From IMG/VR virus record IMGVR_UViG_3300044946_000175, positions 1 to 64,000 of that record: a DNA stretch of 64,000 nt; one strand, written 5' to 3'. The notes beneath the pieces were generated by a model, which worked only from the letters and a program-made list of their open reading frames with translations, did no database searches and was not told the DNA's origin. The translations under genes and the position numbers were made by a program. This DNA is from a virus. Each line of letters begins with the position of its first letter. The first letter of the stretch is position 1. Below are positions 14,640-61,708 of the stretch, piece after piece.

Positions 14640-14667
14640 ATCCTACTCTACGAATAAGAAAAGGCAA
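14640..14667 (-). promoter_or_regulatory. Phage promoter TTGCCT-N16-TAGGAT
   Basis: On the minus strand, -35 TTGCCT (14667-14662), a 16-bp spacer and -10 TAGGAT (14645-14640). Six nucleotides separate the -10 from the ATG at 14633. The upstream side carries an AAAAGAC half-repeat. Same family as the sites at 15236, 34341, 52841, 55930, 60477 and 61227. Confidence 0.7.
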
Positions 14668-14669
14668 GT

Positions 14670-15235: not shown

Positions 15236-15263
15236 ATCTTACATCATCAAAACCAAAAGGCAA
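15236..15263 (-). promoter_or_regulatory. Phage promoter TTGCCT-N16-TAAGAT
   Basis: Minus strand: -35 TTGCCT at 15263-15258, 16-bp spacer, -10 TAAGAT at 15241-15236, then 6 nt to the ATG at 15229. A GAAAAGACAGAA half-repeat lies just upstream of the -35. Confidence 0.75.
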
Positions 15264-15355
15264 ATCAAAATTCTGTCTTTTCCTACACGATAAAACCACC
15301 CATATAGTATCGCCTAACTCCGTGCCGTCCCGACCGAAATTTTCAGAAATTCTCA

Positions 15356-26204: not shown

Positions 26205-27299
26205 CTAGGTAGATGCTAAAACGTCTGTTGTTTTTGGGGCTGGTTTACGAACAGCCCAAGCACTCAAATTGAGCGCGGCGTTGAGATCGGCATTCACGGA
26301 GAGTCCGCAATGCATGCAGACAAACTCAGACTGATTCTTGCGATTTGTCTTTTCGCAGTGTCCACACTTGGAGCAGGCGCGGCTGCTGTTTCGTGGATCG
26401 ACGGCAACGACAGGCACGCCTGCCAGTCGAGCTTTGTACTCCACGAAAGTTCTGAGTTGTGCGAATGCCCAATTACCGAAACGACGACGAAATCTTCGGC
26501 CAACCGTATCCTCGATTCGGTTTCGGATTCCCTTGAGGTCTTCAAGAGCGATTCCCAATCGAAGTGTCTTTGCCTTTTCGACCAGTCGCTTGCTAATGTT
26601 ATGGTTTGTCCATGTTTGAAATCGACGCTGACGACCGGACATGGACTTCAACCGACGTTTTGCATTCTTGGTTCCTTTTCGTTGGTATTGTTTGCGAGCA
26701 GTCATCCGACGTTTGCGGTTTCGTTCGACACAAGTACCAGAGAATTGCTCTCCGGTGGAATCGGTGGCAATATTAGCAATTCCGAGATCGACTCCCAAGA
26801 AGTTTTTAATTTCCAATATTGGATCTTCGGGAATGTCGCATGTGGCAAACAAGAAGAATTTTCCATCTCGATAAACCAGATCTACTTGTCCTTTAAGGCG
26901 GGCAAGATTGGCTTTTTGATAATCACCGAAAATGTAAGGAACGAGAATGCGGCCATTCAAAGTCAAAATCGAAACTTTGTCGCATCCCTTCCACGACAGA
27001 ATTCGCTCATCGTATGTTATTCCTCCGGTAGATTTAAAAATTGGACAAATAGATCTGTCTCGCTTAAAACACTCAGCGGCTTTACCAATGGCACGAATAG
27101 CCATCTGAGCCGACAAGCCGAACCGCTCACGAAGTTCTCGGTAGCAGAGTTTTTGAATCGATGGAGCAGAAAACAAGCCAGCGTCGAATCCTGCTTTTGC
27201 GGCAAACGATGCAGCGGCATTGCATGCTCTCAATGTAACGAGCAAAAAAGAGGCCTGTTCGTCAGTAGGCAGCAGTCGAACTTGAACGGTTAGTTTCAT
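26205..27299 (-). CDS. tnpB: TnpB-type RNA-guided nuclease (IS200/IS605 OrfB)
   Basis: A 364-residue minus-strand protein, a normal TnpB length. RuvC-like motifs are intact: GVDLGIANIATDS (first Asp), LGIALEDLKGIR (Glu), and NADLNAALNLS (last Asp). A zinc knuckle, CSKCGH...CMHCG, lies between them. TnpB nucleases cut DNA guided by an omega RNA from the 3' end of the element; here that would lie near 26154-26260 on the minus strand. No tnpA is adjacent, so the element cannot move alone, or it has been retained for another purpose. The ATG lies 6 nt after a TATAAT box. Confidence 0.88.
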   Translation of the reverse strand: MKLTVQVRLLPTDEQASFLLVTLRACNAAASFAAKAGFDAGLFSAPSIQKLCYRELRERFGLSAQMAIRAIGKAAECFKRDRSICPIFKSTGGITYDERILSWKGCDKVSILTLNGRILVPYIFGDYQKANLARLKGQVDLVYRDGKFFLFATCDIPEDPILEIKNFLGVDLGIANIATDSTGEQFSGTCVERNRKRRMTARKQYQRKGTKNAKRRLKSMSGRQRRFQTWTNHNISKRLVEKAKTLRLGIALEDLKGIRNRIEDTVGRRFRRRFGNWAFAQLRTFVEYKARLAGVPVVAVDPRNSSRACSKCGHCEKTNRKNQSEFVCMHCGLSVNADLNAALNLSAWAVRKPAPKTTDVLAST

Positions 27300-27757: not shown

Positions 27758-28108
27758 ATGGATGCAACTCAAGAACAGCTTCGATATCCATATGTTCCAA
27801 AAAAATGTCTTGGCGGTCCTATTGAATTCTGCTTAAAAACAGGCAATCCGAAACTTCGTTATTTGTTTTTTGATATGGATGAAGCATCCCACTTAAAACA
27901 ACCTGTAGATGAGTGGCCGTGTGCTCTCGATGGCGAACCGCATACGCCGGGATCGGTGACGGAACGTGGAATAGTTCCCGACAATGAGCGAAATCGCACA
28001 CGTTATCAGACCCTACTGCGAAAATTCTTCGATTCGAAAATTGAGGCAACTTTACAAGTAGTCCTCACTGAAATTCGAGCAGTAAAGAAGCATCTAGGTA
28101 TTGATTGA
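27758..28108 (+). CDS. Hypothetical tail-region protein
   Basis: A 116-residue product with a GKP-like N-terminal region (YPYVPKKCLGGPIEFCLKTGN) and a C-terminal helix (LLRKFFDSKIEATLQVVLTEIRAVKKHLG). It starts behind an AAAAAAGCAAAAT leader resembling the recurrent AAAGGCAAAA motif. Function is unknown. Confidence 0.5.
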   Translation: MDATQEQLRYPYVPKKCLGGPIEFCLKTGNPKLRYLFFDMDEASHLKQPVDEWPCALDGEPHTPGSVTERGIVPDNERNRTRYQTLLRKFFDSKIEATLQVVLTEIRAVKKHLGID

Positions 28109-28119
28109 AAGGCAAAATA

Positions 28120-28221
28120 ATGGATTTTCTTTTCATAATTCTTGCACTTGCCTTTCCATCCATGCTCTACTGGATCGGAGTGGAGTTCAGACAAGTCATA
28201 TCAATTTTTCGAAAGTACTAA
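28120..28221 (+). CDS. 33-residue membrane peptide
   Basis: ATG 28120 directly behind AAAGGCAAAATA, the recurrent start leader. One hydrophobic helix (FLFIILALAFPSMLYWIGV) with a basic tail. The stop is 1 nt before the next ATG. The conserved leader supports translation. Confidence 0.5.
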   Translation: MDFLFIILALAFPSMLYWIGVEFRQVISIFRKY

Positions 28222-32725: not shown

Positions 32726-34135
32726 ATGGCAATCAATCTTACAGAACTATTTGAAAGCATTGGAAGGATTGGCCATACAGCGTATCTCATCAATATCGCT
32801 CAGGCTGGACAACCTCCTACTTTTGAGGAACTTGCAACCGAAGCATGGATGAATGAGCTTTGGATAGTCAATCTCATACAAACGTATGACACACTGATTC
32901 GCTCAGAGTCGGTTCCGATGGGGCAGTGGCAAGCTGCCGCTACTAACATCCTTCTCGGCATGGTGGCACTAGCAGATCCTACCTTCGGGGGTGGTGTTTC
33001 GAATGCTTTAGGTTATATCTACAATCAAATGGTCGCCCAGGGACAGACAGTCAAAGAAGCAGCACTTGGGTCATCCTATACACCGTTTACAACGAATATA
33101 GGTAGTGGGAATGTCTGCGTGGTTCTGGTCCGTGCTGATGGTATGTCTCTTCAGAATACAGTTCCCGAGACAGGTCAGTTATCCATCACTGCTGACAGTT
33201 TCACGGGCGGCGCGACGGTCGGTCAGGAGCCGTGGCAGTACGTGGGAGTTCCCAATCTCTCATCGCAAGGAACGGGAGTTCCGACCGGAATCTGGAACTG
33301 GGACTGGCCTACCGGATCGGGTGTAGTTGTCGGTGGTAATTGCATTTCTGCTTTACAAAACGCATCTGCATCCGGTAACTATCTCACCAACGGAGCATTT
33401 TCTAATTGGAACGCCACACCAGCACCATCGAATTGGAATCTTTTGACTGGAATCTGGGGAGTAACGGCTCAGCAGTCTTCTACCTCACTCGTTACTGGTG
33501 GTTTTTCTGTACAGTTTAATGTTGGTGCGACTAATGAGTTGACGCAACAGTTCGGATCATCAGCTACGACTGGGGCTGCTGCCGGAACGACAGTCCTTCC
33601 GACTTCTTATGCAGGTTATGCCTTTAACATCTTCCTGAGATCGACTGGCGTAATGACTGGAGGTGTGTTAACCGTTTCTCTTGTCAATGCTGCAAACAAT
33701 GCAGTAATTAACGATCAGGCAGGAAACCCACAAACATTTAATATTAACTTGTCTGGGCTGTCATCAGCCGAATGGACACCCTTCACGATTCCATTCCGCC
33801 TTCCAACCAATCCGCCAGAAAATTATCAACTAGCGCTTACGACCTCAACACCACCGGCGGGAGCGAATCTTTTGCTGGACTGTGCGGCTTTTTGTGCTCC
33901 TATTAATCTCTATGTTGGGGGGCCGAATCTTGCAGTATTCTCCAACCCATCTGCTCCTTTTCATGCCGTTCCTTTGCAAGATGGGTGGTCGGTTGTGTTG
34001 ACGAATGATCGCGGAGGGTCGCAGTATCTCGCAACCATGCAGGCTTTGTGGAATAGGCTATTTCAGGCTCCTGGTTTGATTTTACCATACGCGGCAAGCC
34101 CGACATTGCCGGATACTCTAATTACCAATCCGTAG
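32726..34135 (+). CDS. Tail protein with carbohydrate-binding-like domain
   Basis: A 469-residue product starting 6 nt after the previous stop. Residues 1-120 are helical. Residues about 215-390 begin LTNGAFSNWN and continue as a jelly-roll-like beta domain with the N-x-x-NG-x-FS-x-W opening seen in CBM4/9-type carbohydrate-binding modules. It may touch host surface sugars. Its 3' end overlaps an opposing small gene by 14 nt. Confidence 0.55.
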   Translation: MAINLTELFESIGRIGHTAYLINIAQAGQPPTFEELATEAWMNELWIVNLIQTYDTLIRSESVPMGQWQAAATNILLGMVALADPTFGGGVSNALGYIYNQMVAQGQTVKEAALGSSYTPFTTNIGSGNVCVVLVRADGMSLQNTVPETGQLSITADSFTGGATVGQEPWQYVGVPNLSSQGTGVPTGIWNWDWPTGSGVVVGGNCISALQNASASGNYLTNGAFSNWNATPAPSNWNLLTGIWGVTAQQSSTSLVTGGFSVQFNVGATNELTQQFGSSATTGAAAGTTVLPTSYAGYAFNIFLRSTGVMTGGVLTVSLVNAANNAVINDQAGNPQTFNINLSGLSSAEWTPFTIPFRLPTNPPENYQLALTTSTPPAGANLLLDCAAFCAPINLYVGGPNLAVFSNPSAPFHAVPLQDGWSVVLTNDRGGSQYLATMQALWNRLFQAPGLILPYAASPTLPDTLITNP

Positions 34136-34334
34136 TTTGATAGGGACCAGAGCGGTTGAGTGGAATTGTTTGTCGGGCAACTAAATCTTCTGCACATCCG
34201 GCGGGAAGGATGATCCATTTGTAATCTCCTCCGACTGACATCTGAGCTTCGTTTAGATTGTCGAATTGCATTCGATCAATATAGCGACCTTGTGAATCTG
34301 TTTTCAAAGCCACATAGGGTTTAAAGAAATTCAT
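34122..34334 (-). CDS. Small minus-strand hypothetical protein
   Basis: A 70-residue product (YVALKTDSQGRYIDRMQFDNLNEAQ). Its ATG lies 6 nt after a TACAAT -10 with TTGCCT 16 bp upstream, so it probably has its own leaderless transcript within the tail operon. No family is recognised. Confidence 0.6.
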   Translation of the reverse strand: MNFFKPYVALKTDSQGRYIDRMQFDNLNEAQMSVGGDYKWIILPAGCAEDLVARQTIPLNRSGPYQTTDW

Positions 34335-34340
34335 TCTGTT

Positions 34341-34368
34341 ATTGTAGGATCTAGTAGATAAAAGGCAA
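34341..34368 (-). promoter_or_regulatory. Phage promoter TTGCCT-N16-TACAAT
   Basis: Minus strand: TTGCCT (34368-34363), 16-bp spacer, TACAAT (34346-34341), 6 nt to ATG 34334. An AAAAAGACAAAA half-repeat lies upstream. Confidence 0.7.
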
Positions 34369-38132: not shown

Positions 38133-38735
38133 TTATGTGACATGCTTCCATCTGGCCCGCGTCACAGCGCCTCGTACTGCACCAAATGGTTTATTATATT
38201 TTCTACAAATCTGAGTAATCATAGCTCCACTATCGTATTCGATTCGCATAATTCGAACCAGGTCTTCCGTTAGTACGGCATTTCCATTACCTTCTCCGCG
38301 ACTGCTTGTTCCGTGTTTTATTTTGTCTGCTGCATTGCCTTGCGGTGTATCCCATCTGAGATTGGATAATTTATTGTTTTGCTGATCGCCATCGTTATGG
38401 CATCCTTCCATTCCAAGCGGACGAGGGCCAACGAACGCTTCAAGAACTAGACAATGAACGAGAATTTCCTTTCTGTAGTAATGGCGGTAAAGACCAAATA
38501 TTGAATACGATTTGTTATTTAACCTTGATTTACGTCGTTTCCATACAGTTCCGACTATTAAGACTGATCCGCTTCCGTTACCTTTGCCTCTTTTGCCGTG
38601 ATATGAACAATTCCAAACCGATCCGTCATCCCCTACTCGATAGCCTGGAAATCCCATAAAATCCAGCTTGCGGTAACAAACATCGTTTTCAGGATCGCAA
38701 TGGAATTCTGGAATGCTAGAATAGCCGTCTGACAT
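38133..38735 (-). CDS. HNH homing endonuclease (copy B)
   Basis: A 200-residue minus-strand protein from ATG 38735 (GGAG 8 nt upstream). It shares DVCYRKLDFMGFPGYRVGDDGSV with copy A (24263-24850), then HCLVLEAFVGPRP, CHNDGDQQNNKLSNLRW and a C-terminal helix-turn-helix-like tail. An upstream in-frame start at 38798 would translate through a 12-bp hairpin and is rejected. Both copies share the leader GGAGCAAA..CCATG. Confidence 0.8.
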   Translation of the reverse strand: MSDGYSSIPEFHCDPENDVCYRKLDFMGFPGYRVGDDGSVWNCSYHGKRGKGNGSGSVLIVGTVWKRRKSRLNNKSYSIFGLYRHYYRKEILVHCLVLEAFVGPRPLGMEGCHNDGDQQNNKLSNLRWDTPQGNAADKIKHGTSSRGEGNGNAVLTEDLVRIMRIEYDSGAMITQICRKYNKPFGAVRGAVTRARWKHVT

Positions 38736-52409: not shown

Positions 52410-52499
52410 TTAGTCAGTCTGGCGGCACTTCTTCAGGAGTTTTAGCTCGTAAGCCAGTTCGCATTGTAATTCCTCCAGTTCTTCAATCCTATCCCACAA
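52410..52499 (-). CDS. Possible 29-residue coiled-coil peptide
   Basis: A minus-strand frame from TTG, reading WDRIEELEELQCELAYELKLL, strongly coiled-coil-like. A GGAGG with ATG 7 nt downstream in another frame would instead give a 16-residue peptide. A promoter (TTGTCT-N17-TAGGAT, 52514-52486) overlaps its 5' end, which favours the shorter frame. Weakly supported. Confidence 0.25.
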   Translation of the reverse strand: MWDRIEELEELQCELAYELKLLKKCRQTD

Positions 52500-52514
52500 A
52501 AACCTAAAAGACAA
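52486..52514 (-). promoter_or_regulatory. Divergent promoter TTGTCT-N17-TAGGAT
   Basis: Minus strand: -35 TTGTCT (52514-52509), 17-bp spacer, -10 TAGGAT (52491-52486). It pairs back to back with the plus-strand site at 52530, so the two arms of one inverted-repeat region serve opposite directions. Confidence 0.5.
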
Positions 52515-52562: not shown

Positions 52563-52823
52563 ATGGACAGTCTTTCCAAACAACTGACATCGGAGACGGC
52601 GATGGTAATGGATACTATTCGGGCTGAAGAGCGGCGTAAAGCAGCATATTTGAATTATGATTATAGTGTAAGCAAACTGACTCTGGCCGAAGTGCTGGAG
52701 GTCGATCTCGAACACATAGAACAGTATAACCGAAAGGTCATTACTGGCGGAGAACTCGACTGCCTCTTTCACTGGGGTGTCCTCCCCCATCGTCTGTTTG
52801 ATAGACTTCAGAGCGTGGTCTGA
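52563..52823 (+). CDS. Small hypothetical protein
   Basis: An 86-residue, mainly helical product (MDSLSKQLTSETAMVMDTIRAEERRKAAYLNYDYSVS is the N-terminal part, cut here by the reader as two segments: residues 1-20 and 21-36). No Shine-Dalgarno is seen; a probable leaderless start close to a promoter. First gene of the accessory block. Confidence 0.5.
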   Translation: MDSLSKQLTSETAMVMDTIRAEERRKAAYLNYDYSVSKLTLAEVLEVDLEHIEQYNRKVITGGELDCLFHWGVLPHRLFDRLQSVV

Positions 52824-52840
52824 AAAGACAAAATTTTAAC

Positions 52841-52868
52841 TTGCCTTTTCACTCCTGGATGGTAAGAT
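52841..52868 (+). promoter_or_regulatory. Phage promoter TTGCCT-N16-TAAGAT
   Basis: TTGCCT 52841-52846, 16-bp spacer, TAAGAT 52863-52868. An AAAAGACAA left arm precedes it. A leader of about 35 nt with AGGAG follows before ATG 52910. Confidence 0.75.
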
Positions 52869-52909
52869 GGGTGTGTAGGACGAAATCACCACCACACAGG
52901 AGCAAAGTT

Positions 52910-53473
52910 ATGAATATGCGTTTCTGCTCTGCTACTGGCCGAATGATGCACAAATTCAATCCCGAAACACACCAGTGCGCCTGCGGTCGATGGGAGCGCG
53001 GTTTTAAGCCAAAGACTGGTCCAGTCAAGCCACGGGCAGAGTGTCAAATTTGCGAAGGTCAGTGGGCTCTTGAAAGTACAGGCTGCATCGGACATCACGG
53101 ATACAAGCGTCCTGGATGCGGTTTTATCGCTGGTGACTGCATGGGCGTGGACCACAAACCATATCCAGCGACGGACGCGCTGGAAAAGTACGAAATCTGC
53201 CTGATGGGGATCTTGGCTCGTGCTCAAGATAACCTGACAGAACTGCCAACACTGACGGAGTTTCATCATCAAATGACCAGATCGCGAAAAGAACCAAAGA
53301 CGGTAGTGGTCAAGAAGGGTGATGAATACAGACTCGATCTGGAATACAGACAATATGTTCCTTCTTTTGACGATTTGGTGAAAAGACGTGGAACCGAACT
53401 GGTCCAAAAAATCGAGTCTCTTCGAAGTGAACTGGTGCGCGTAAAAACACGAATCACAAAGGCAAAACAATGA
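52910..53473 (+). CDS. Cys/His-rich hypothetical protein
   Basis: A 187-residue product from ATG 52910 (AGGAG 7 nt upstream; ATG 52916 is also in frame). CACG, CQIC, CIGHHGYKRPGCG and CMGVDH give several possible zinc sites. A C-terminal helix follows. No family is recognised. It ends in an ATGA overlap with the next gene. Confidence 0.55.
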   Translation: MNMRFCSATGRMMHKFNPETHQCACGRWERGFKPKTGPVKPRAECQICEGQWALESTGCIGHHGYKRPGCGFIAGDCMGVDHKPYPATDALEKYEICLMGILARAQDNLTELPTLTEFHHQMTRSRKEPKTVVVKKGDEYRLDLEYRQYVPSFDDLVKRRGTELVQKIESLRSELVRVKTRITKAKQ

Positions 53474-53772
53474 GTAAGCGTAAAAACGTTCATGTTATTG
53501 TCACTACAGAATCAACCCTCGCCACAAAGGAAGTTCCTTATGTGTCTGGTTGGGGCGAAAACGCCAAAGCGTTTCGGGTTGACGGAGACGTAATGAAGAT
53601 CGACATCAATGACGATGTCGGGAAAGGATTAGTGAGTTTTGTGATCCGGGAGGATGGATCGCTTATCGTTACTAATTATCAAGGAGTCTACAGCCTATTT
53701 CTCGGCAGTAATGTGCGATTGGAGAACGTGATGCCCTGGAGTGAAACCCAAACAGGAGCAGACAAATGCTGA
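53470..53772 (+). CDS. Hypothetical protein
   Basis: A 100-residue product behind AAAGGCAAAACA with an ATGA overlap. Beta-rich (VHVIVTTESTLATKEV, KGLVSFVIREDGSLIVTNYQG). It overlaps the next gene by 7 nt. Function is unknown. Confidence 0.5.
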   Translation: MSKRKNVHVIVTTESTLATKEVPYVSGWGENAKAFRVDGDVMKIDINDDVGKGLVSFVIREDGSLIVTNYQGVYSLFLGSNVRLENVMPWSETQTGADKC

Positions 53773-54359
53773 AGAAAGACATCGTTGTCGGCGGTCTCTA
53801 CAAGGCCAAAGTGTCCAACAAAATCGTAACGGTACGGGTGGACAAGATCCGCACGTCTTACGGAACTGGTCGTACTCGCGATGCTACCGTTTACGATGTG
53901 ACAAATCTTACAACGAAGCGAACGACTACATTCCGGAGCGCGGCAAAGTTCCGAGAGTCCGTACAGACATGGACTACTTTGGTTTCAATCAAATCGAACA
54001 GACCGCGATTCAAAATAGGAGATCGAATCAAGATCGGTCCAAATACGATAGGTTATGAAGGGCATTACAAAGCTGGTGATGAAGGGACCATAAAAAAAAT
54101 CGAATGGGACAAAGGCGGAGGCGGACATGCGCCTGGGTGGGTCTGCACAGTCGATATTTCGGCTTCTGCCTACTCAAAGTTCTGGGAAGAGCTTCTGGAG
54201 CCGGTCATGGAGGGTGAGAAGCGCACGGATTTTCCTGTCCAGAATGCTCCATCTGCGGAGACTACCTCGAATCGGGCTGGTGTCATTCCTGCTACAAATT
54301 TACCGAAAAATAAGCCAGGAACGTGGCAACTGTCGGATGATTTACCGGGTAGTTATTAG
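53766..54359 (+). CDS. Hypothetical protein with small beta-barrel modules
   Basis: A 197-residue product. DIVVGGLYKAKVSNKIVTVRVDKI and RFKIGDRIKIG...GDEGTIKKIE resemble two SH3/KOW-like barrels. The C-terminus is Pro/Thr-rich. It may bind nucleic acid; not proven. Confidence 0.5.
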   Translation: MLKKDIVVGGLYKAKVSNKIVTVRVDKIRTSYGTGRTRDATVYDVTNLTTKRTTTFRSAAKFRESVQTWTTLVSIKSNRPRFKIGDRIKIGPNTIGYEGHYKAGDEGTIKKIEWDKGGGGHAPGWVCTVDISASAYSKFWEELLEPVMEGEKRTDFPVQNAPSAETTSNRAGVIPATNLPKNKPGTWQLSDDLPGSY

Positions 54360-54360
54360 T

Positions 54361-54383
54361 CTTTTTGCAAATTCTGCAAAAAG
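54361..54383. repeat. 9-bp inverted repeat
   Basis: CTTTTTGCA at 54361-54369 and TGCAAAAAG at 54375-54383, perfect, loop 5 nt, directly after the stop of the preceding gene. A weak terminator or spacer hairpin. Confidence 0.45.
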
Positions 54384-54396
54384 GCAAAATAATTAG

Positions 54397-54425
54397 TTGC
54401 CTTTCACCAGAATCGAAACTAAGAT
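54397..54425 (+). promoter_or_regulatory. Phage promoter TTGCCT-N17-TAAGAT
   Basis: TTGCCT 54397-54402, 17-bp spacer, TAAGAT 54420-54425. AAAAGGCAA lies upstream as the left arm. The 5' leader begins with a 7-bp hairpin (GTAAGTC/GACTTAC, 54432-54450), then CAGGAG before ATG 54473. Confidence 0.7.
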
Positions 54426-54472
54426 GAAAGTGTAAGTCGAAGTGACTTACCTAATCACTCAGGAGACTTTTG

Positions 54473-55216
54473 ATGTCCAATCTCATGCTTCACTCGGGCG
54501 GTCGTCAGGCAACCATCGAAGAGGTCCGCGCCGTCGTCACTCCGGCTCCGGAGGGTCGCTGGCATCCCACTTCACACATTACCGTTCTGGACAGCGTCCG
54601 CGAGACTCTCACTGGTGCTGGCTACACGATCAAGGCCGAAAAGTACGGTCTGGCCCGTAATGATCACCGCTTCTTTGGCATCCTGGACCTGGAAACTCCA
54701 CTCGTGACTGGTGTTGGTCTGTCCGTGGGTGTCCGAAACAGCACAGACAAGACCTTCCCGTTGGGATTTGCGGCTGGTTCCCGTGTGTTTGTCTGCGATA
54801 ACCTTGCCTTCAGCGCGGAGTTGATGGTTCGCCGCAAACACACCAGGTTCGGCCTTCAGCGGTTCGGTAATGCGATTGGAGAGGCAGTTGCTTCACTCAC
54901 GTCCTTCAAGGACGCCGAAGCAGATCGCATCAAGAAGCTGGCCGATATGGAATTGACGGCACGGGATGCTAGTCACATCATCCTGACCGCCTATCGGCGT
55001 GGTATTATCAACACGCAGCAGATTTCGGACGTCATCAAGGAATGGGAAGAGCCTCGTCATAAAGACTTCCAGCCCCGTACCGCGTGGAGTTTGTTCAATA
55101 GCTTCACGGAGATTCTTCGGGATCGGGCCATCAAGAATCCCCAGGCGTTCGTGGCTTCCACCATTCGCCTGAATGGACTGATGCTGCCCGAAGCGACTCC
55201 TGCTCTGGCTGTGTAA
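54473..55216 (+). CDS. DUF932 family phage/plasmid-like protein
   Basis: A 247-residue protein from ATG 54473 (CAGGAG upstream). It has the length and pattern of DUF932: VVTPAPEGRWHPTSHITVLDSV, FFGILDLET, GLSVGVRNSTDKTFPLGFAAGSRVFVCDNL, then a helical C-terminal half. DUF932 proteins are common in phages and plasmids; their biochemical role is unsettled. It has its own promoter and a terminator behind it, so it is a one-gene transcription unit. Confidence 0.75.
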   Translation: MSNLMLHSGGRQATIEEVRAVVTPAPEGRWHPTSHITVLDSVRETLTGAGYTIKAEKYGLARNDHRFFGILDLETPLVTGVGLSVGVRNSTDKTFPLGFAAGSRVFVCDNLAFSAELMVRRKHTRFGLQRFGNAIGEAVASLTSFKDAEADRIKKLADMELTARDASHIILTAYRRGIINTQQISDVIKEWEEPRHKDFQPRTAWSLFNSFTEILRDRAIKNPQAFVASTIRLNGLMLPEATPALAV

Positions 55217-55229
55217 CCGGCAGTTCCGA

Positions 55230-55260
55230 GAAAAGGCAGGATTATATCTTGCCTTTTCTT
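55230..55260 (+). terminator. Terminator built from the GGCA/TGCC repeat
   Basis: GAAAAGGCA at 55230-55238 pairs with TGCCTTTTC at 55250-55258 (loop 11 nt), then TT. No -10 lies at the usual distance, so here the repeat acts as a terminator rather than a promoter. Confidence 0.6.
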
Positions 55261-55295
55261 TATGTCAAAACACCCCAAACATAAAAAGGCAAAAC

Positions 55296-55913
55296 ATGAA
55301 CGCTACTTCAAAAATCCTTTGGCTCCGCGAGCGCATCCGCGATCAACAAAAGTGGATTGAAATGAATGGTGGTGATCTTGCCGGTTATCGGGCACGATAC
55401 GGAGATGTGAACTATGCTCCGTTGAACGCCGATGGTAGTATTCGTACATTCACTATTCCGACTGAGAGACAGACGCCAGAGCTTATCGAAGGACTAAAGC
55501 GGATAGACTCCGTGCGATTTGTCGTTCCCATGTACGCTGACGGCGGTTCCAAAATCTGGGAAGCCGATGTGATGGCTTACGACAAGCTGGTGGATGAATT
55601 ACTCGAACTGGAGAAACAGCATCCAGAAGCAGCACGGACGGCTGGCATTGCTGATCCTCGTCCGGTTGTTATTAAGTGCATGAAGAATTACGATCCCGAA
55701 CGCGATCTGAAGTATTTCGGATCGCTAGTGCATAGTTGGGATAATAGCCCCCGACCTTCAAATGGAGAAATAGCTGCAAGTTCTATAGCTCATAATCTGC
55801 TCCAAAATCTCGGCAAACTGGACGAGTCGGCGCAACGAGGTGTGGTTGCTTTTGTCGAACTGCTCATGCGGGGCGAAGTCAAACGAGCTAGTGAGATTTT
55901 GAGGGGCAAATAA
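55296..55913 (+). CDS. Hypothetical protein
   Basis: A 205-residue product behind AAAAAGGCAAAAC. Mixed alpha/beta with a C-terminal helical region (LDESAQRGVVAFVELLMRGEVKRASEIL). No family is recognised. It is followed by the inverted repeat and promoter of the next gene. Confidence 0.5.
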   Translation: MNATSKILWLRERIRDQQKWIEMNGGDLAGYRARYGDVNYAPLNADGSIRTFTIPTERQTPELIEGLKRIDSVRFVVPMYADGGSKIWEADVMAYDKLVDELLELEKQHPEAARTAGIADPRPVVIKCMKNYDPERDLKYFGSLVHSWDNSPRPSNGEIAASSIAHNLLQNLGKLDESAQRGVVAFVELLMRGEVKRASEILRGK

Positions 55914-55929
55914 AAGGCAAAATTCTGAC

Positions 55930-55957
55930 TTGCCTTTTCTGGAATCGGTTGTAAGAT
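55930..55957 (+). promoter_or_regulatory. Phage promoter TTGCCT-N16-TAAGAT
   Basis: TTGCCT 55930-55935, 16-bp spacer, TAAGAT 55952-55957. The left arm AAAAGGCAA (55912-55920) and right arm TTGCCTTTT (55930-55938) form a perfect 9-bp repeat. Leader with CAGGAG before ATG 55986. Confidence 0.78.
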
Positions 55958-55985
55958 TCTGGTAACTCAAACTCAGGAGCTTGCT

Positions 55986-56522
55986 ATGCCGAATTCTGTT
56001 ACCGTTATGCATTACGGAGTCGAGGGAACTGGTCGTACTGTGACTGAGGCAAAGAAAGATGCCGGTAAGAAGATCGAGAAGGCGTTGGAGGGCAGCTATA
56101 CGCCGCAGATTCTTGCGTGGCGTGGTTATGTCGCTTTGGTCTATCGCGATATGCAGGGATGGCAGAGTCGTCTCATCATGGACCCGGAGCGAGGCGTCAT
56201 CGACGGTCCTGTCCACGGATCGCATTACGGAGACGAAATCAAGGAAGCGGTGGATGCAGCCAACAGTAATCTTGCTCAACTTGGTTGGAAGCCTGAAGAT
56301 TGCCTGGAATGTCCGTCCATCCTTACCACACGCGAGCAGCAGAGCGATTTTCGGCACTGGTGCAAGTTTCAGTTGCGATATAAGGCAGCGAAGAGTGCTG
56401 GCTTGAACGACAACGAAGCTCATTCCTTCGCCGGATATAACCCGTCAACGCCGGAACTTCAGACGAGAGTTCCACAAGAGGCTCTGGCTGCATTCGGCGT
56501 GGCTGAGTCGAAGGCGATTTAA
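55986..56522 (+). CDS. Hypothetical protein
   Basis: A 178-residue product (CAGGAGCTTGCT upstream). N-terminal alpha/beta domain (TVMHYGVEGTGRTVTEAKKDAGKKIEKALEG is a strand-helix unit, given here as its first half through residue 20 and the rest) with a WRGYVALVYRD strand pair, then a helical C-terminus. No family is recognised. Confidence 0.5.
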   Translation: MPNSVTVMHYGVEGTGRTVTEAKKDAGKKIEKALEGSYTPQILAWRGYVALVYRDMQGWQSRLIMDPERGVIDGPVHGSHYGDEIKEAVDAANSNLAQLGWKPEDCLECPSILTTREQQSDFRHWCKFQLRYKAAKSAGLNDNEAHSFAGYNPSTPELQTRVPQEALAAFGVAESKAI

Positions 56523-56577
56523 TGGCTGTTCAGTTTGTATCGAAATTCAAACCGACCAGTTCAGAGGAGGAAGACAA

Positions 56578-56790
56578 ATGAATAAAAAAGACATATTCAT
56601 CCGCGCCTTGGCTGAATTCTTGGTGAAGGACCAAGCTAAAAAGAGTGTGGAACTGGCAATGGGGAATGAACACGCCAAGCAGTGGGCGGATCTCAGGAGC
56701 GCCTCTCCGCTGTTCGACTATCCAACAGTTGAAGAGGCTGAAAAGAGCCTGAAGGAATTTTTCTCTAACAAAACAGGAAAAGGCAAATGA
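56578..56790 (+). CDS. Small helical protein
   Basis: A 70-residue product preceded by GAGGAGGAAG. Helical (DIFIRALAEFLVKDQAKK). It ends in an ATGA overlap with the membrane peptide below. Function is unknown. Confidence 0.5.
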   Translation: MNKKDIFIRALAEFLVKDQAKKSVELAMGNEHAKQWADLRSASPLFDYPTVEEAEKSLKEFFSNKTGKGK

Positions 56791-56921
56791 CAACCGAGAC
56801 AGCAAAGTTTATACTCGACGTATTTCCGGTCTGTTTTTTGATCGTAACCATACCCGGCTTCATCCTGGTGTTTTTGCTGCTAGTGAAGTCGATAATTTCT
56901 GTGGGAGATAGAGATAAATGA
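56787..56921 (+). CDS. 44-residue membrane peptide
   Basis: ATG 56787 behind AAAAGGCAA and in an ATGA overlap; the stop TGA 56919-56921 overlaps the next ATG. One long hydrophobic helix (VCFLIVTIPGFILVFLLLV). Translational coupling on both sides supports it. Confidence 0.55.
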   Translation: MTTETAKFILDVFPVCFLIVTIPGFILVFLLLVKSIISVGDRDK

Positions 56922-57412
56922 ATAAAAGATTTCCTCCACGATTGAATTACGGCAGTACGATGGAGTTCTCCGTCGCGCACGGATTTCTCGAAAACGGTCC
57001 ATCGAAGTCAAAGCCAAAACTGCCGCGATTGTTGCAGTTTGTCCTTCCTCCCTTCCAGCGTGGCGAGGTGTGGACCACTACGCAAAAATCGCGATTCATC
57101 GAGTCGTTGTGGTTGGGTCTGCCGATTTCTGTCTATGCTTACAATGAGTCGCCTACCTTCGGCGAAATCGACTACTGGCTCATCGATGGGCAACAGAGAT
57201 GGACGGCAATTCGAGACTTTGTAGAGAATAAATTCGAAGTGTTCGGCGGGTTGAAGTATAGCGACATGAACGAGTGCGAATTGAGGCAGTTCAAGAACAA
57301 ACGATTTCCTGCCATCTTGATCAATAGTGACGACGTGAAGGAGTTGCAGGATATATATGAGCGGCTGGCTTATGGCGGAACTGCTCACGAAAAATCAGGA
57401 GAAAGCAAATGA
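56918..57412 (+). CDS. Single-domain DUF262 (GmrS-like, ParB-fold) protein
   Basis: A 164-residue protein. LPPFQRGEVWTTTQKSRFIESL and LIDGQQRWTAIRDF are the hallmark motifs of DUF262, the ParB/Srx-fold NTP-binding domain of GmrSD-type modification-dependent nucleases. There is no DUF1524 nuclease half. A stand-alone copy in a phage could regulate or antagonise such defence systems, or act on nucleotides. ATGA overlaps at both ends. Confidence 0.72.
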   Translation: MNKRFPPRLNYGSTMEFSVAHGFLENGPSKSKPKLPRLLQFVLPPFQRGEVWTTTQKSRFIESLWLGLPISVYAYNESPTFGEIDYWLIDGQQRWTAIRDFVENKFEVFGGLKYSDMNECELRQFKNKRFPAILINSDDVKELQDIYERLAYGGTAHEKSGESK

Positions 57413-57621
57413 AACTTGACGACGACAAGACTGAGGCAACTTTGTGGATGATCTTTTCGTGCGTTGCCTTGTTCGGTCTCTTATCGCACGAGGGAGTCCG
57501 ACAGGCTAAGGGTCCGGATGATAACGCAGAGCGTGACGCGGCCGCAAGCGCTGATAGAATGCTCAGGAGATTCAAAAAAAGATTCGACCAAGATTCTGAG
57601 TCGTTCGGAAAGGCAAAATAA
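57409..57621 (+). CDS. Small membrane-associated protein
   Basis: A 70-residue product in an ATGA overlap. A short hydrophobic segment (LWMIFSCVALFGLLS) then a charged helix (NAERDAAASADRMLRRFKKRF). Function is unknown. Confidence 0.5.
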   Translation: MKLDDDKTEATLWMIFSCVALFGLLSHEGVRQAKGPDDNAERDAAASADRMLRRFKKRFDQDSESFGKAK

Positions 57622-57833
57622 TGATTCGTCCAAAATGGACTACCGCTAAACCGACCCAACCCGGCTGGTACTGGTATCGTCAGGGAGCAGGTGGTGAGAT
57701 AATTGTTTCTCTTCATCAATACAACGATTCATTCATTATACGATTTTCTGGTAACGGCCAGAGCTTTGATTTTGATGAAGTGGTTGCAGAATATCCGGGC
57801 GCTGAGTGGGCCGGGCCGTTAGAAAAGCCTTAA
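57621..57833 (+). CDS. Small hypothetical protein (DUF551-like opening)
   Basis: A 70-residue product behind AAAGGCAAAATA. KPTQPGWYWYR recalls the P-x-x-GWYW opening of DUF551-type phage proteins. Beta-rich. It ends the overlapping chain that began at 56578. Confidence 0.5.
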   Translation: MIRPKWTTAKPTQPGWYWYRQGAGGEIIVSLHQYNDSFIIRFSGNGQSFDFDEVVAEYPGAEWAGPLEKP

Positions 57834-57894
57834 AAATTCCGTCAAGAATCCGTAGCACGATAACCCCATCTTCTGCGAGTGTATTTCCAGAGGC

Positions 57895-57922
57895 TTCTGC
57901 GCTCCATTACTTTCGATAGAAT
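57895..57922 (+). promoter_or_regulatory. Putative promoter
   Basis: TTCTGC at 57895-57900, 16-bp spacer, TAGAAT at 57917-57922, upstream of ATG 57958. Spacing fits the family, -35 is divergent. Confidence 0.35.
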
Positions 57923-57957
57923 AAAACCGATCAATAACCTGAACCTGGAAAGTTCAT

Positions 57958-58467
57958 ATGAATGCTAGACCGAACGCGAAAGAATTGAGAGAAAAGGCTG
58001 CTGAACTCAAAGAGGCAAAGAATGCCATCAAGACGGTGCCTCTTACCGTCGAGAACGTGGATCGTCTGGATGCGACCACTTCAAATGCAAAAGCATCTGC
58101 CAAACCGAAGCCGGAAAAGAAGCAAAAACCACCAAAAGACCCAAAAGACATAAAACCACCCCAACCGCCAGACCCTAACTCCAAGAGAAGTCAGAAAAAG
58201 CTCAAAGGACGGCTCCCGCACGGTTCCAGGTTCGACAATTTCGTTTATGATGGCGAGAAAGTGGAGTGGACGGGGATACTCACAGTTCCTGGATTCGAGG
58301 TATTTAGGGACCGGGCCAATGGCGTGATGACTCTGTTTTCCAGACTTGATAAAGCCTATCGAAGAGCGGCGAAGGAACGAGAGTCTGCCTCACCCGTTCC
58401 ACCATCGCCAGAGCCGAACTGCGAGCAGCACACTGGCAATGATGACCAAAATCGCGATGGCGAGTAG
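57958..58467 (+). CDS. Lys/Pro-rich hypothetical protein
   Basis: A 169-residue product. The N-terminal 85 residues are a Lys/Ala/Pro-rich disordered tract (PKPEKKQKPPKDPKD). Residues 85-140 are folded (LPHGSRFDNFVYDGEKVEW). It may bind nucleic acid. It overlaps an opposing short gene. Confidence 0.5.
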   Translation: MNARPNAKELREKAAELKEAKNAIKTVPLTVENVDRLDATTSNAKASAKPKPEKKQKPPKDPKDIKPPQPPDPNSKRSQKKLKGRLPHGSRFDNFVYDGEKVEWTGILTVPGFEVFRDRANGVMTLFSRLDKAYRRAAKERESASPVPPSPEPNCEQHTGNDDQNRDGE

Positions 58468-58509
58468 TATCGGTAGTTCCAGAGTTGCATATCCAGCTTT
58501 GCGTTTCAT
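58390..58509 (-). CDS. 39-residue TadE/pilin-like membrane peptide
   Basis: A minus-strand ATG at 58509 with GAGGT upstream. RKAGYATLELPILLAIAILV has the E-x-P hydrophobic layout of TadE/TadG-type N-termini, then RLWRWW. It overlaps the 3' end of the plus gene by 78 nt. Too short for a full TadE protein. Confidence 0.4.
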   Translation of the reverse strand: MKRKAGYATLELPILLAIAILVIIASVLLAVRLWRWWNG

Positions 58510-58569
58510 GGATTTTTCTTGACCTCGAAACTTGATGGGCATAGACTTTTGGGGTGGATTAAACGGAAA

Positions 58570-58602
58570 GAGCGAGTTTTCCCGCAAAGAAAAGACTCGC
58601 TC
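58570..58602. terminator. Bidirectional terminator hairpin
   Basis: GAGCGAGT at 58570-58577 pairs with ACTCGCTC at 58595-58602, extended by TTTTC/GAAAA inside. In the minus direction it is followed by TTTCCGTTT, which fits termination after the gene at 58629. Confidence 0.65.
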
Positions 58603-58628
58603 GACCGTCACGTCAGTGTGAGCACATT

Positions 58629-59009
58629 CTATGTGACACACCGACCATAAGCAATTCCACAATTCAAAAATTCTTTGCGTATAGCCTCCAGGTTTGAGGC
58701 GACGGAAATGCCATACATCTGCGGACTGGCGAGCAATAGCGGTATGGGAACCGGCTTGGCGTTGTAGTAGCGGGAGTTCCCCACTACCAGCCAAAGTCGG
58801 CTGGCTGCATTTTCTCGATTGAAAAGAGGGAATGCTATCGGTTTGTTGAGGTGACGGGTGGGTGAATTTATTTCACTGGCTTTGTCCAACTGTGCAAGCA
58901 GTTCCATGCGTTCGGGGGTAGGTGGCTGGCGCTCCTTAATAGAGCATGGAGTCGTGGGGGTCAGCATGGGCTGGCGTCCGGAGCGACTGTAAACAAGACT
59001 CCGGACCAA
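58629..59009 (-). CDS. Minus-strand hypothetical protein, start uncertain
   Basis: A frame of up to 126 residues; ATGs at 58967 and 58907 are alternatives, none with a clear ribosome-binding site. The C-terminal 90 residues look folded (LWLVVGNSRYYNAKPVPIPLLL, SVASNLEAIRKEFLNCGIAYG). A terminator lies just beyond its stop. No family is recognised. Confidence 0.4.
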   Translation of the reverse strand: MVRSLVYSRSGRQPMLTPTTPCSIKERQPPTPERMELLAQLDKASEINSPTRHLNKPIAFPLFNRENAASRLWLVVGNSRYYNAKPVPIPLLLASPQMYGISVASNLEAIRKEFLNCGIAYGRCVT

Positions 59010-59043
59010 ACGAAAGCGAGGATGAGGGGTGACGCATTCGTGA

Positions 59044-59098
59044 AGTAGCTCCGTATCGTTTCAAGATCATTTAAATCTTGGAATGGTACGGGGCTACT
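59044..59098. repeat. Long rod-like inverted repeat
   Basis: AGTAGCTCCGTA (59044-59055) pairs with TACGGGGCTACT (59087-59098) with one wobble. Inside, CAAGAT and ATCTTG form a second helix. It is a candidate terminator, small RNA, or cleavage site upstream of the HNH gene. Confidence 0.45.
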
Positions 59099-59176
59099 CC
59101 GCTCAGAATCCAGGATCAACATTCCATTTCAGAGTTGGTTGTGTTTAGCTTTGTGTGTTGGAAGTGAGGTGTTTTG

Positions 59177-59734
59177 ATGGATGCAGTACAATATGCGAAA
59201 TACCTAAGATCGGATCATTGGATTGAGTTCAGCAGTCATGTCCGGAAGAGTCGATGCTTTTGTTGTGGTGTTGAGAAGACTGGTTTGCACGTCCATCACA
59301 TAACATACGAACGTGTTGGGAAAGAACTGGAACAGGATGTTGTGACAGTATGTAATGGATGTCACATCAAAATCCACAAGAGAGTCAAGAGAGGAACCAA
59401 ACTTGAAGATGCACATTTTGTCGTCAAGAAGTCGATGACGAGTCGAGAGGGACACCTGGTCGGGAAGTGGTGTTCGTGGCCGCGCCTTTTGAATCCGTCA
59501 CTACAACAAACCATCGGCAAGTTGAAAGCCTTTCTAGTTCTCAAGGGTCTTTTGGAAGATGGGAGGGCATCAAAGCTCGCATACCGCTTGAAGTTCGCTC
59601 GGGTAGTAAATGGTAAAGAGAGATGGCACAAAATGCGGTTCATTGATATGGCGAGAGCGGATCGTAAGATATGGAGGTGTAGGCAACAAGGAAAGGCAAT
59701 TTATCCATCGCTCCGCAAACGCGCTCTTATTTGA
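59177..59734 (+). CDS. HNH endonuclease
   Basis: A 185-residue product from ATG 59177 (GAGGTG 7 nt upstream). CFCCGVEKTGLHVHHITY and VTVCNGCHIKIHKRV form the HNH core: paired Cys knuckles, HH as catalytic-type His, and a final C-x-x-CH. The C-terminal half is basic. It is not closely similar to the other HNH genes in this window. Confidence 0.78.
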   Translation: MDAVQYAKYLRSDHWIEFSSHVRKSRCFCCGVEKTGLHVHHITYERVGKELEQDVVTVCNGCHIKIHKRVKRGTKLEDAHFVVKKSMTSREGHLVGKWCSWPRLLNPSLQQTIGKLKAFLVLKGLLEDGRASKLAYRLKFARVVNGKERWHKMRFIDMARADRKIWRCRQQGKAIYPSLRKRALI

Positions 59735-59744
59735 AAAGGCAAAA

Positions 59745-60221
59745 ATGAAAATTCAACTCTTCTTCGATGGCGGATGTACTCCCCGTAATCCAGGAGGAAC
59801 CGGTACGTGGGCCTACGTCATCAAAGGTCTGACTGAAGCCGACGTGGAAGGGTACGGTGCATTACAGGCTTCTCCCAAGATGACCAACAACGTCGCGGAG
59901 TACGTGGCGCTTGGGAAGGGTCTGCGATTTCTGGCCGACTACCAGAGTACCGACGCGGCAAAGGTCTTGACGAGCCTGGAGATAAGAGGCGACTCCAAGC
60001 TGGTTGTAAACCAACTGACCGAAGAGTGGAAGTGCAACAAGGAACATCTTCAGAAGCTTCGTGCGCGCTGTTGGGAGTTGTTGGAGCAGATCAAGTGTTC
60101 GTGGACTACGGAGTGGATTCCTCGTGAAGAGAACTCACGAGCCGATGCTCTGGGTCACAAGGCTTATACCGAAGCGACCGGACAGCCTTATCCCGATACG
60201 ATCAACGGCAGGCGGATATAA
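59745..60221 (+). CDS. RNase H-like protein
   Basis: A 158-residue product from ATG 59745 behind AAAAGGCAAAA; upstream frame belongs to the HNH gene. LFFDGGCTPRNPGGTGTWAYV (first Asp), NNVAEYVALGKGL (Glu), IRGDSKLVVNQL (second Asp) and EENSRADALGHKA (last Asp) give the full RNase HI active-site set. The enzyme removes RNA from RNA-DNA hybrids during replication. Confidence 0.85.
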   Translation: MKIQLFFDGGCTPRNPGGTGTWAYVIKGLTEADVEGYGALQASPKMTNNVAEYVALGKGLRFLADYQSTDAAKVLTSLEIRGDSKLVVNQLTEEWKCNKEHLQKLRARCWELLEQIKCSWTTEWIPREENSRADALGHKAYTEATGQPYPDTINGRRI

Positions 60222-60446
60222 ATGGACGATCCTTATTATGAGGTTCGGAGCGAGATTGAAGCCCATGAGAAGTTGCTGAAGTCCCATCCTGATTGTCAAA
60301 GGATGTGGGATGTCTGGGTCGCCCACCCCGACAAAACCAAGAGTGCATTGAATCCTCGTGAGATGGCTGAAGTCTGGGGCGTTTCGGAGTTGAGGCGGCA
60401 TCCTCTATTTGTGCGGTATATCGCGGGTAAGATGGGAGCGGTTTAG
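60222..60446 (+). CDS. Small hypothetical protein
   Basis: A 74-residue product starting right after the RNase H stop. Helical (EVRSEIEAHEKLLKSHPDC, LNPREMAEVWGVSELRRHPLF), the latter resembling a winged-helix recognition segment. Function is unknown. Confidence 0.5.
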   Translation: MDDPYYEVRSEIEAHEKLLKSHPDCQRMWDVWVAHPDKTKSALNPREMAEVWGVSELRRHPLFVRYIAGKMGAV

Positions 60447-60476
60447 CGGCAAGTCGATAAGAACCTAACTAATAAC

Positions 60477-60504
60477 TTGCCTTTTCATCTTCCTGTGTTA
60501 AAAT
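60477..60504 (+). promoter_or_regulatory. Phage promoter TTGCCT-N16-TAAAAT
   Basis: TTGCCT 60477-60482, 16-bp spacer, TAAAAT 60499-60504. The ATG at 60512 is 7 nt away, so the transcript is predicted leaderless. No left arm is present here. Confidence 0.7.
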
Positions 60505-60511
60505 CCCGACA

Positions 60512-61195
60512 ATGGAACTTTCCGAGCAAGTCTGGTGGGAAGTAGAAGCCGACAACGGTAAGTGGGCAGGTCTGGTCGATCCGACCTGGATCACTTCCAC
60601 AGTGATTGCTCTGTGTCAGCAGATCGAAAAGAGTAAAGACGCCTCGCTCCTGCCGATCCTGGCCGATGCGCTCCATATGGATGCTGGTTGTGAGGATGCA
60701 CTGTTGTTGAAGTTCTTGCGCGAGAACGTGGTCATTAGAATCGCGAGTATAAATGGGCCAATGGGATCTTATAAATGTCGTAGAGATAAAGGCATGTCCC
60801 GCGAAGTCATCGCCAGTCAAATAGGCAAATTGAGTCGTTTTTTTGATGGTGGTGATCATGTGTTTATTGACGATTGGAAAGCTTACCAGGACGCCAAGCG
60901 AAAGCACTATCTCGCGCAGGAGCAGTGCAAAAACTATCTCACGAATCCAGACATCAAGGCCGCTCTCCTGGCGCTCCCTCATCCCCATCCGGCTTTTAGG
61001 CAAAGTAAGAAATGGTGGGATTATTGCTGCTGGTTTACTGAAAAGCGGCTCTATCCGACTCTGCTTCGCAAATTGAAGGAATTGATGAAGGAGAACAAGA
61101 GTTTTGCCGTAGTGGTTGAGGAATCGAAGCACGAGAGAGTCGCCACTGCTCCGCTTGTGTCTGGGCAGAGAGTGTTAGACTGGGATGATGTTTAG
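60512..61195 (+). CDS. Protein with Gemmata-type ILADAL..DAGC module
   Basis: A 227-residue product. Residues 25-70 (TSTVIALCQQIEK, LPILADALHMDAGCEDALLLKFLRE) match a module I know from Gemmata-like planctomycete proteins, usually followed by a segment on the theme HVRGCWVVDLL. Here the continuation is different. The C-terminus is helical and charged. It is the best host clue in the window. Function is unknown. Confidence 0.6.
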   Translation: MELSEQVWWEVEADNGKWAGLVDPTWITSTVIALCQQIEKSKDASLLPILADALHMDAGCEDALLLKFLRENVVIRIASINGPMGSYKCRRDKGMSREVIASQIGKLSRFFDGGDHVFIDDWKAYQDAKRKHYLAQEQCKNYLTNPDIKAALLALPHPHPAFRQSKKWWDYCCWFTEKRLYPTLLRKLKELMKENKSFAVVVEESKHERVATAPLVSGQRVLDWDDV

Positions 61196-61226
61196 AGTAT
61201 TGGAGAATAAAAGGCAGAATTTTAAT

Positions 61227-61254
61227 TTGCCTTTTGTGGTTTGGGGAGTAAGAT
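61227..61254 (+). promoter_or_regulatory. Phage promoter TTGCCT-N16-TAAGAT
   Basis: TTGCCT 61227-61232, 16-bp spacer, TAAGAT 61249-61254, 6 nt to ATG 61261 (leaderless). AAAAGGCA (61209-61216) is the left arm. Confidence 0.75.
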
Positions 61255-61260
61255 GAATTT

Positions 61261-61485
61261 ATGAAACAATGTACCAAACTCGTCTGTAAGCAGACCTTCT
61301 CATTTAAAGTCGATGGAGAAGGCAGAGTTACTACTTTTCGAGAAGGGCAGGAATTCTGGATAACTAATACGGAGACGCATCAAAAGAACAGCGGAAGTGT
61401 GAACGTGGCGAGAAAAGGTCAGAAGTGGGGCTACAGTTTCACTGCGGAGCAAGTTACTCAGTTTTTTGTGGAAAAGGAAGATTAA
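61261..61485 (+). CDS. Small beta-rich protein
   Basis: A 74-residue product, probably read from a leaderless mRNA. Strands FSFKVDGEGRVTTFREGQEFWI and GYSFTAEQVTQFFVE. No family is recognised. Confidence 0.5.
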   Translation: MKQCTKLVCKQTFSFKVDGEGRVTTFREGQEFWITNTETHQKNSGSVNVARKGQKWGYSFTAEQVTQFFVEKED

Positions 61486-61489
61486 TAGT

Positions 61490-61708
61490 TTGCCTTTTCT
61501 GGTGTTGCTTCTGGCCAGATGGCAGACCCAAAATGGAAAGCATTGGCTGGAGCTTTATCGGGACGGCGACAGCTACTACTACAGAGGAGACGACTGCGGA
61601 GGTGTCCTGGGCCGTCTGCCTGGAACTGAGGTTGCTATTGCCAAGATAGAAGCTGGAGCAGTGAGTTGTCTCAAGAGTGATTTTCCTAGCACAAAGAAGG
61701 TGAAGTAA
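61490..61708 (+). CDS. Small hypothetical protein
   Basis: A 72-residue product from TTG 61490 (GGAAG upstream). GTG 61466 would overlap the previous gene. GKHWLELYRDGDSYYYRGDDCGG is a beta pattern. Its stop overlaps the next start (TAATG). The start is uncertain. Confidence 0.4.
   Translation: MPFLVLLLARWQTQNGKHWLELYRDGDSYYYRGDDCGGVLGRLPGTEVAIAKIEAGAVSCLKSDFPSTKKVK

What the first reader, a model, noticed from the sequence alone, without database searches (positions are those of the whole stretch)
52841..61254. A phage promoter family: TTGCCT-N16/17-TAAGAT on both strands
Near-identical promoters occur at 14640, 15236 and 34341 (minus) and 52841, 54397, 55930, 60477 and 61227 (plus). Spacing is 16 bp in seven and 17 in one. 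-10 boxes are TAAGAT (5), TAGGAT, TACAAT and TAAAAT. This looks like a dedicated regulon driving short accessory units, separate from the structural operon, whose promoters differ.
Basis: seen in the sequence. Interest (0 to 1): 0.8.

Follow-up and report, generated by a model that had tools for sequence, protein, structure and literature searches.

The report
Repeated operator-like phage promoters
A previously unseen bacterial virus appears to switch on many small, unrelated genes from near-identical promoters whose recognition box is one arm of a repeated 27-letter mirror sequence, which suggests that a single, still unidentified regulator controls them together.

Summary
The eight sites are real and far beyond chance. 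The 119-kb virus record holds sixteen such promoters, eight of them beyond the window. In 14 of 16 the -35 box TTGCCT is the right arm of an imperfect 27-bp inverted repeat, AAAAGRCRA-N9-TTGCCTTTT, centred near -39. The promoters drive unrelated short genes. Five are predicted to start transcription on, or one base before, the ATG (leaderless); eleven carry a leader. The half-site AAAAGGCAA is the most over-represented 9-mer of the record (52 seen, 1.4 expected), and is also enriched inside genes and near gene starts and stops. Best reading: operators of one unidentified DNA-binding regulator overlapping the -35 box, working like the SPbeta repeated element or mycobacteriophage stoperators. 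Rivals: a terminator fused to a promoter (PeSL-like), or copies of a plain promoter. The hairpin is broken at over half the sites, and the repeat persists between divergent genes, which argues against termination as its main role. No binder is shown; a 68-aa Cro/CI-type protein is the clearest candidate. No integrase was found, and the relatives found lack the word, so conservation could not be used.

The parts
14640..14667 (-). Family promoter TTGCCT-N16-TAGGAT; dyad 14659-14685; leaderless start of gene 14274-14633 (-, 119 aa)
15236..15263 (-). Family promoter TTGCCT-N16-TAAGAT; dyad 15255-15281; leaderless start of gene 15002-15229 (-, 75 aa)
34341..34368 (-). Family promoter TTGCCT-N16-TACAAT; left arm at spacer 8; leaderless start of gene 34122-34334 (-, 70 aa); no co-directional gene upstream
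52841..52868 (+). Family promoter TTGCCT-N16-TAAGAT; dyad 52823-52849; leader, then gene 52910-53473
54397..54425 (+). Family promoter TTGCCT-N17-TAAGAT; dyad 54379-54405; leader with a 7-bp hairpin, then DUF932 gene 54473-55216
55930..55957 (+). Family promoter TTGCCT-N16-TAAGAT; perfect 9-bp-arm dyad 55912-55938; leader, then gene 55986-56522
60477..60504 (+). Family promoter TTGCCT-N16-TAAAAT with degenerate left arm; leaderless start (one base before ATG) of gene 60512-61195
61227..61254 (+). Family promoter TTGCCT-N16-TAAGAT; dyad 61209-61235; leaderless start of gene 61261-61485
55231..55257 (.). Dyad without its own -10 box, very stable as an RNA hairpin (-19.8 kcal/mol), just after gene 54473-55216; terminator-like, or an extra operator
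61472..61498 (.). Imperfect dyad without a -10 box at the end of gene 61261-61485
52486..52514 (-). Weaker relative TTGTCT-N17-TAGGAT; only a 16-codon reading frame follows, so doubtful
55285..55298 (+). Example of the half-site at a translation start: AAAGGCAAAACATG before gene 55296-55913 (11 called starts in the record have it)

Best explanation
The sites are sigma70-type promoters with a built-in operator. A dimeric DNA-binding regulator (phage- or host-encoded, not identified) recognises the 27-bp dyad AAAAGRCRA-N9-TTGCCTTTT. Its right half covers the -35 box TTGCCT, so bound regulator and sigma region 4 would compete for the same groove. The simplest outcome is joint repression of all cassettes, with release at one stage of infection (or on induction, if the phage is temperate). 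Isolated half-sites and promoterless dyads would be further, weaker binding places. Shown from sequence: the promoter family, the dyad, its fixed place over the -35 box, the unrelated genes, the gap of 6-7 nt between -10 box and ATG in five, and the genome-wide excess of the half-site. Inferred: binding, the dimer, the sign (repression rather than activation) and the timing.
For: Left-arm match peaks sharply at spacer 9 (mean 7.3 of 9, at most 5.1 at other spacers). Dyads with up to 3 mismatches: 28 matches (both strands) in the window against 0.29 expected; 51 in the record against 0 for the reversed pattern. The right arm is conserved over nine bases, TTGCCTTTT, although sigma70 needs only the hexamer, while the -10 box varies. 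In 14 left arms G5 and C7 never change while position 6 is G or A, which looks like base readout by a protein. Left arms persist where no gene needs terminating: 34368- and the divergent pair 111188-/111261+. Half-site is the top over-represented 9-mer, in gene interiors too, and clusters near starts and stops. The 9-N9-9 geometry is that of a proven repressor operator, CIRCE (PMC7464140). Dispersed operators of one phage repressor exist (PMC10516654; PMC6550527). A Cro/CI-type HTH protein is encoded at 67039-67245.
Against: No binder is shown. The HTH_3 protein is a candidate by family only, and the dyad arms are about 16 bp apart centre to centre, wider than usual for Cro/CI-type dimers (own knowledge). 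Two members (60477+, 112758+) lack a good left arm. Most intragenic copies are single half-sites. No integrase, resolvase or ParB was found, so a lysogeny role has no support. One genome only; the relatives found lack the word. Many dyads lie at the stop codon of a co-directional gene, as terminators would.
Confidence: 0.5

Rival explanations
1. Composite terminator-promoter: the inverted repeat acts as an RNA hairpin that ends the upstream transcript, and its 3' arm doubles as the -35 box of the next unit. Recombination between copies would shuffle the units, as proposed for the PeSL cassettes of T4-like phages.
For: Many dyads sit at or just after the stop of a co-directional gene. Two strong hairpins lie there: 55231 (-19.8 kcal/mol) and 112082 (-17.7). 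Other phage contigs do fuse a strong terminator with TTGCCT-N16-TATAAT. Leaders are similar while the driven genes are unrelated.
Against: The stem is unpaired at one position in six promoters and at several in three; six of those nine have -4 kcal/mol or weaker. The U-tract is mostly 4-5 U. The left arm is kept between divergent genes. In RB49's clear hairpin-promoter pairs the -35 box lies outside the stem.
Confidence: 0.25
2. Plain sigma70 promoters with an A/T-rich upstream element, copied around the genome by duplication or recombination; the symmetry has no regulator behind it.
For: A/T-rich spacer before the -35 box; related leaders at unrelated genes.
Against: The symmetric GRC and GCC cores at fixed distance, nine conserved bases at the right arm with a variable -10 box, dyads without promoters, and the half-site excess far from promoters.
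Confidence: 0.18
3. The word is a host- or DNA-processing signal (Chi-like, uptake-like or similar) that pervades the genome, and promoters merely grew out of it.
For: Excess in both orientations inside genes (42 and 23 against 11 and 5).
Against: The exact register with -35 boxes and the 9-bp pairing, and the preference for gene ends and starts. The promoter-dyad pattern in the genome collection gave only scattered, almost all single, matches.
Confidence: 0.06

Closest known systems
SPbeta repeated element (SPBRE) bound by MrpR, Bacillus phage SPbeta (PMC10516654)
   Same: A short element repeated through a large phage genome in promoter regions of many small genes, noticed by sequence long before its binder was known.
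   Different: SPBRE is a different 15-bp motif, SPbeta is a proven prophage, and its binder has a tyrosine-recombinase fold. Here there is no known binder, no integrase found, and the arm doubles as the -35 box.
Operators/stoperators of cluster A mycobacteriophages (PMC9283540, PMC6550527)
   Same: One sequence both in promoters and dispersed in the genome.
   Different: Stoperators are asymmetric 13-14 bp sites, 20-30 per genome, oriented with transcription, and bound by a monomer. Here promoter sites are dyads, the half-site is far commoner, and orientation is mixed.
PeSL cassettes of T4-like phages (Arbiol 2010 and Comeau 2014, not held; described second-hand in PMC4503421)
   Same: Compact regulatory unit between short accessory genes, hairpin-like sequence next to a sigma70 promoter, unrelated genes behind similar units.
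   Different: In RB49 the hairpin and the -35 box are separate; here the -35 box is inside the repeat and the hairpin is often weak or broken.
CIRCE operator of HrcA (PMC7464140)
   Same: Same geometry: 9-bp arms with a 9-bp spacer, in promoters, bound by a repressor.
   Different: Different sequence (TTAGCACTC-N9-GAGTGCTAA) and target genes; a geometric comparison only.

Membership tests
Sigma70-type promoters | -35 and -10 hexamers at 16-18 bp in front of a gene | tested here: met
   16 members, spacer 16-17 bp, gene start close downstream
Sigma70-type promoters | Transcript starts about 7 nt after the -10 box | not testable with these tools
   Needs 5'-end mapping; the base 7 nt after the -10 box is A or G in 13 of 16
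Leaderless genes | ATG at the predicted transcription start | tested here: met
   ATG 6-7 nt after the -10 box in 5 of 16; over all called starts such pairs with a TTG -35 occur 6 times at gaps 6-7 and once at all other gaps 0-29
Dispersed phage operator of the SPBRE kind | One motif repeated in many promoter regions of the phage | tested here: met
   16 promoters, 14 with a dyad
Dispersed phage operator of the SPBRE kind | Bound by a phage master repressor | not testable with these tools
   Only candidates by family: HTH_3 at 67039-67245
Dispersed phage operator of the SPBRE kind | Temperate phage | tested here: inconclusive
   No PF00589, PF00239 or ParB match; the record is a linear fragment of unknown completeness
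Mycobacteriophage stoperators | Sites oriented with transcription | tested here: not met
   Half-sites in genes: 62 same strand, 30 opposite, close to the ratio expected from codon content
Mycobacteriophage stoperators | Asymmetric site without dyad | tested here: not met
   Promoter sites are dyads; single half-sites occur elsewhere
PeSL cassettes | Effective terminator hairpin beside a strong sigma70 promoter | tested here: inconclusive
   Stable hairpin at some sites, weak or broken at others; termination itself not testable here
PeSL cassettes | Hairpin and promoter as separate neighbouring parts, as in RB49 | tested here: not met
   The -35 box is the 3' arm here; separate in RB49's clear examples
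CIRCE/HrcA | TTAGCACTC-N9-GAGTGCTAA | tested here: not met
   Arms read AAAAGRCRA/TTGCCTTTT

The most novel reading that the evidence does not exclude
AAAAGRCAA is the recognition word of a phage-wide regulator acting at two levels: as a DNA operator over -35 boxes, and as an RNA element at translation starts (AAAGRCAAAAC-ATG; at 28120, 82668 and 105163 the two arms flank an ATG). Further intragenic copies would spread it over the whole genome, in a phage lineage without close known relatives.
Probability: 0.1. Interest if true: 0.75.

Novelty: new variant of a known kind. Interest (0 to 1): 0.45.

Why it matters
If right, sequence alone exposes a coordinated set of some sixteen transcription units in an uncultured phage lineage. 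It gives a concrete binding site for finding the regulator, and groups otherwise unknown genes as jointly controlled, possibly early host-takeover genes. Leadered and leaderless units under one promoter type, including antisense units inside the structural region, are a useful test case for how phages install single-gene cassettes.

Tried and rejected
Exact dyad scan of 2.9 million viral contigs: 26 hits, which look like ordinary terminators in unrelated phages. Dyad-plus-promoter scan of viral contigs: 11 hits, one group of fused terminator-promoters, the rest coding or chance-like. Same pattern in bacterial and archaeal genomes: 68 scattered hits, no host clue. Relatives through DUF932, DnaB, portal and helicase: distant or none, without the promoter dyad. 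The repeated AAACCTGC of L131 is almost all one local cluster, not a dispersed word. ORF 66144-66767, which I suspected by eye to be a sigma factor: no Pfam match, no convincing solved-structure match, poor fold model (pLDDT 40), so dropped. Intragenic half-sites as full dyads: only a minority have a second arm. Conserved 5' leader structure: folding gave no shared hairpin across leaders.

Full report
1. The observation. The exact pattern has 5 hits in the window against 0.02 expected and 6 in the whole 119,161-bp virus record. I read the rest of the record (L007-L009), built a matrix and rescanned. Sixteen promoters score above the simulated sequence and stand before a gene: 14667-, 15263-, 34368-, 52841+, 54397+, 55930+, 60477+, 61227+, 65099+, 65736+, 110651-, 111188-, 111261+, 112082+, 112758+, 114327+ (names give the first base of TTGCCT). 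Spacers are 16 bp, except 17 at 54397 and 111188. The matrix was built from these same sites, so the independent support is the pattern counts.

2. The inverted repeat. Upstream of nearly every site stands AAAAGRCRA, nine bases before TTGCCTTTT. The match to the left-arm word is 7.3 of 9 at spacer 9 and at most 5.1 elsewhere; two sites (34368-, 112082+) have a perfect arm at spacer 8. With the -10 box taken as -12 to -7, the dyad spans -52 to -26, centre -39, and its right arm is the -35 box. The right arm is conserved to nine bases while the -10 box varies, which is not the profile expected of a promoter selected for sigma70 alone.

3. Two kinds of unit. In five members (14667-, 15263-, 34368-, 60477+, 61227+) the ATG follows the -10 box by 6-7 nt, so the predicted transcript starts on, or one base before, the start codon. 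Over all called ATG starts, a TANNRT box with a TTG -35 at gap 6-7 occurs 6 times (these five plus a TnpB-like gene at 26205-27299), and once at all other gaps from 0 to 29 together. The other eleven have leaders, several similar to each other (GTGTAAGACGAA..CACCACACAGGAG), although the driven proteins show no similarity to one another. So promoter and leader seem to travel, or to be copied, independently of the genes.

4. A genome-wide word. AAAAGGCAA/TTGCCTTTT is the most over-represented 9-mer of the record: 52 seen, 1.4 expected. In gene interiors AAGGCAA is the top 7-mer against synonymous-codon shuffles (69 against 17), in both orientations. The next unrelated word has z = 7 against 12, so that null is over-dispersed, but this word leads clearly. 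Copies lie near stops (25%) and starts (17%) more than random positions (7%); control words do not. Eleven called starts carry AAAGRCAAA just before the start codon. Most intragenic copies are single half-sites.

5. DNA site or RNA hairpin? Dyads often lie at the stop of a co-directional gene, as a terminator would. Against a terminator as the main role: six promoters have one unpaired position and three have several. In five of the six the change is G to A at position 6 of the left arm, while G5 and C7 never change in 14 arms. These five could share ancestry, which weakens the count. Hairpin energies run from 0 to about -20 kcal/mol and the U-tract is mostly 4-5 U. The left arm stays where no gene needs ending (34368-; the divergent pair 111188-/111261+). 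RB49, a T4-like phage with PeSLs, keeps hairpin and -35 box apart in its clear examples. A separate group of contigs does fuse a strong terminator with a TTGCCT -35 box, so the fused form can arise. I therefore put the operator reading first (0.5) and the terminator-promoter second (0.25).

6. Sign and mechanism (inference). The right arm coincides with the -35 hexamer, so a bound protein would compete with sigma; repression by occlusion is the simplest reading. A class II activator is not excluded, since the core promoters are only moderately close to consensus. The clearest DNA-binding candidate is a 68-aa HTH_3 protein at 67039-67245. A CsrA homologue is also present. No integrase, resolvase, ParB or sigma region 2 was found; the record is a linear fragment of unknown completeness.

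7. Context and novelty. The portal protein has no match in 50,697 phage records. Helicase relatives in viral contigs share only a few genes with this phage, the helicase at 47-61% identity. The nearest known systems are the SPbeta repeated element with its repressor MrpR, the mycobacteriophage stoperators, the PeSL cassettes and, for geometry only, CIRCE. It may work like the first two, but membership fails or is untested on binder and lysogeny. I rate it a new variant of a known kind.

8. Limits. Gene calls come from my own simple script, so some starts may be wrong. Everything rests on one genome. No transcription, binding or termination is shown.

Noticed in passing
window 55241-55268 (-): The only 12/12 consensus sigma70 promoter of the record (TTGACA-N16-TATAAT) lies antisense to gene 54473-55216, with its -10 box in the middle of the promoterless dyad 55231-55257.
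   Followed up: partly
window 26205-27299 (-): TnpB-like (OrfB_IS605/Cas12f1-like) gene with its own TTGTTA-N17-TATAAT promoter and a predicted leaderless start.
   Followed up: no
record 28107-28133, 82658-82684, about 105152-105175 (window, L007, L009): Dyads of the same word straddle an ATG, giving possible hairpins with the start codon in the loop; maybe translational control.
   Followed up: partly
L012, L025, L122, L124, L125, L127: Another group of contigs (39-41% GC) has a strong terminator (8 T) whose 3' arm TTGCCT is at 16-17 bp from a TATAAT-like box: fused terminator-promoters, two in L012.
   Followed up: partly
L131 14620-14990: Cluster of AAACCTGC repeats on both strands around one site, iteron- or operator-like.
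   Followed up: no
L132 12650-14700 (-): Arrays of GCCNNGCC-type short repeats in intergenic-looking stretches.
   Followed up: no
record 111705-111735 (L009): Long GC-rich palindrome GTCATCGCGACCGCG-A-CGCGGTCGCGATGAC at the end of a called gene; maybe an assembly fold-back or a real hairpin.
   Followed up: no
window 24263-24850 (-), 38133-38735 (-), record 67276-67818, 88616-89122: Four paralogous genes, probably HNH homing endonucleases, spread over the genome.
   Followed up: no
record 91204-91398 (L008): CsrA homologue carried by the phage.
   Followed up: no
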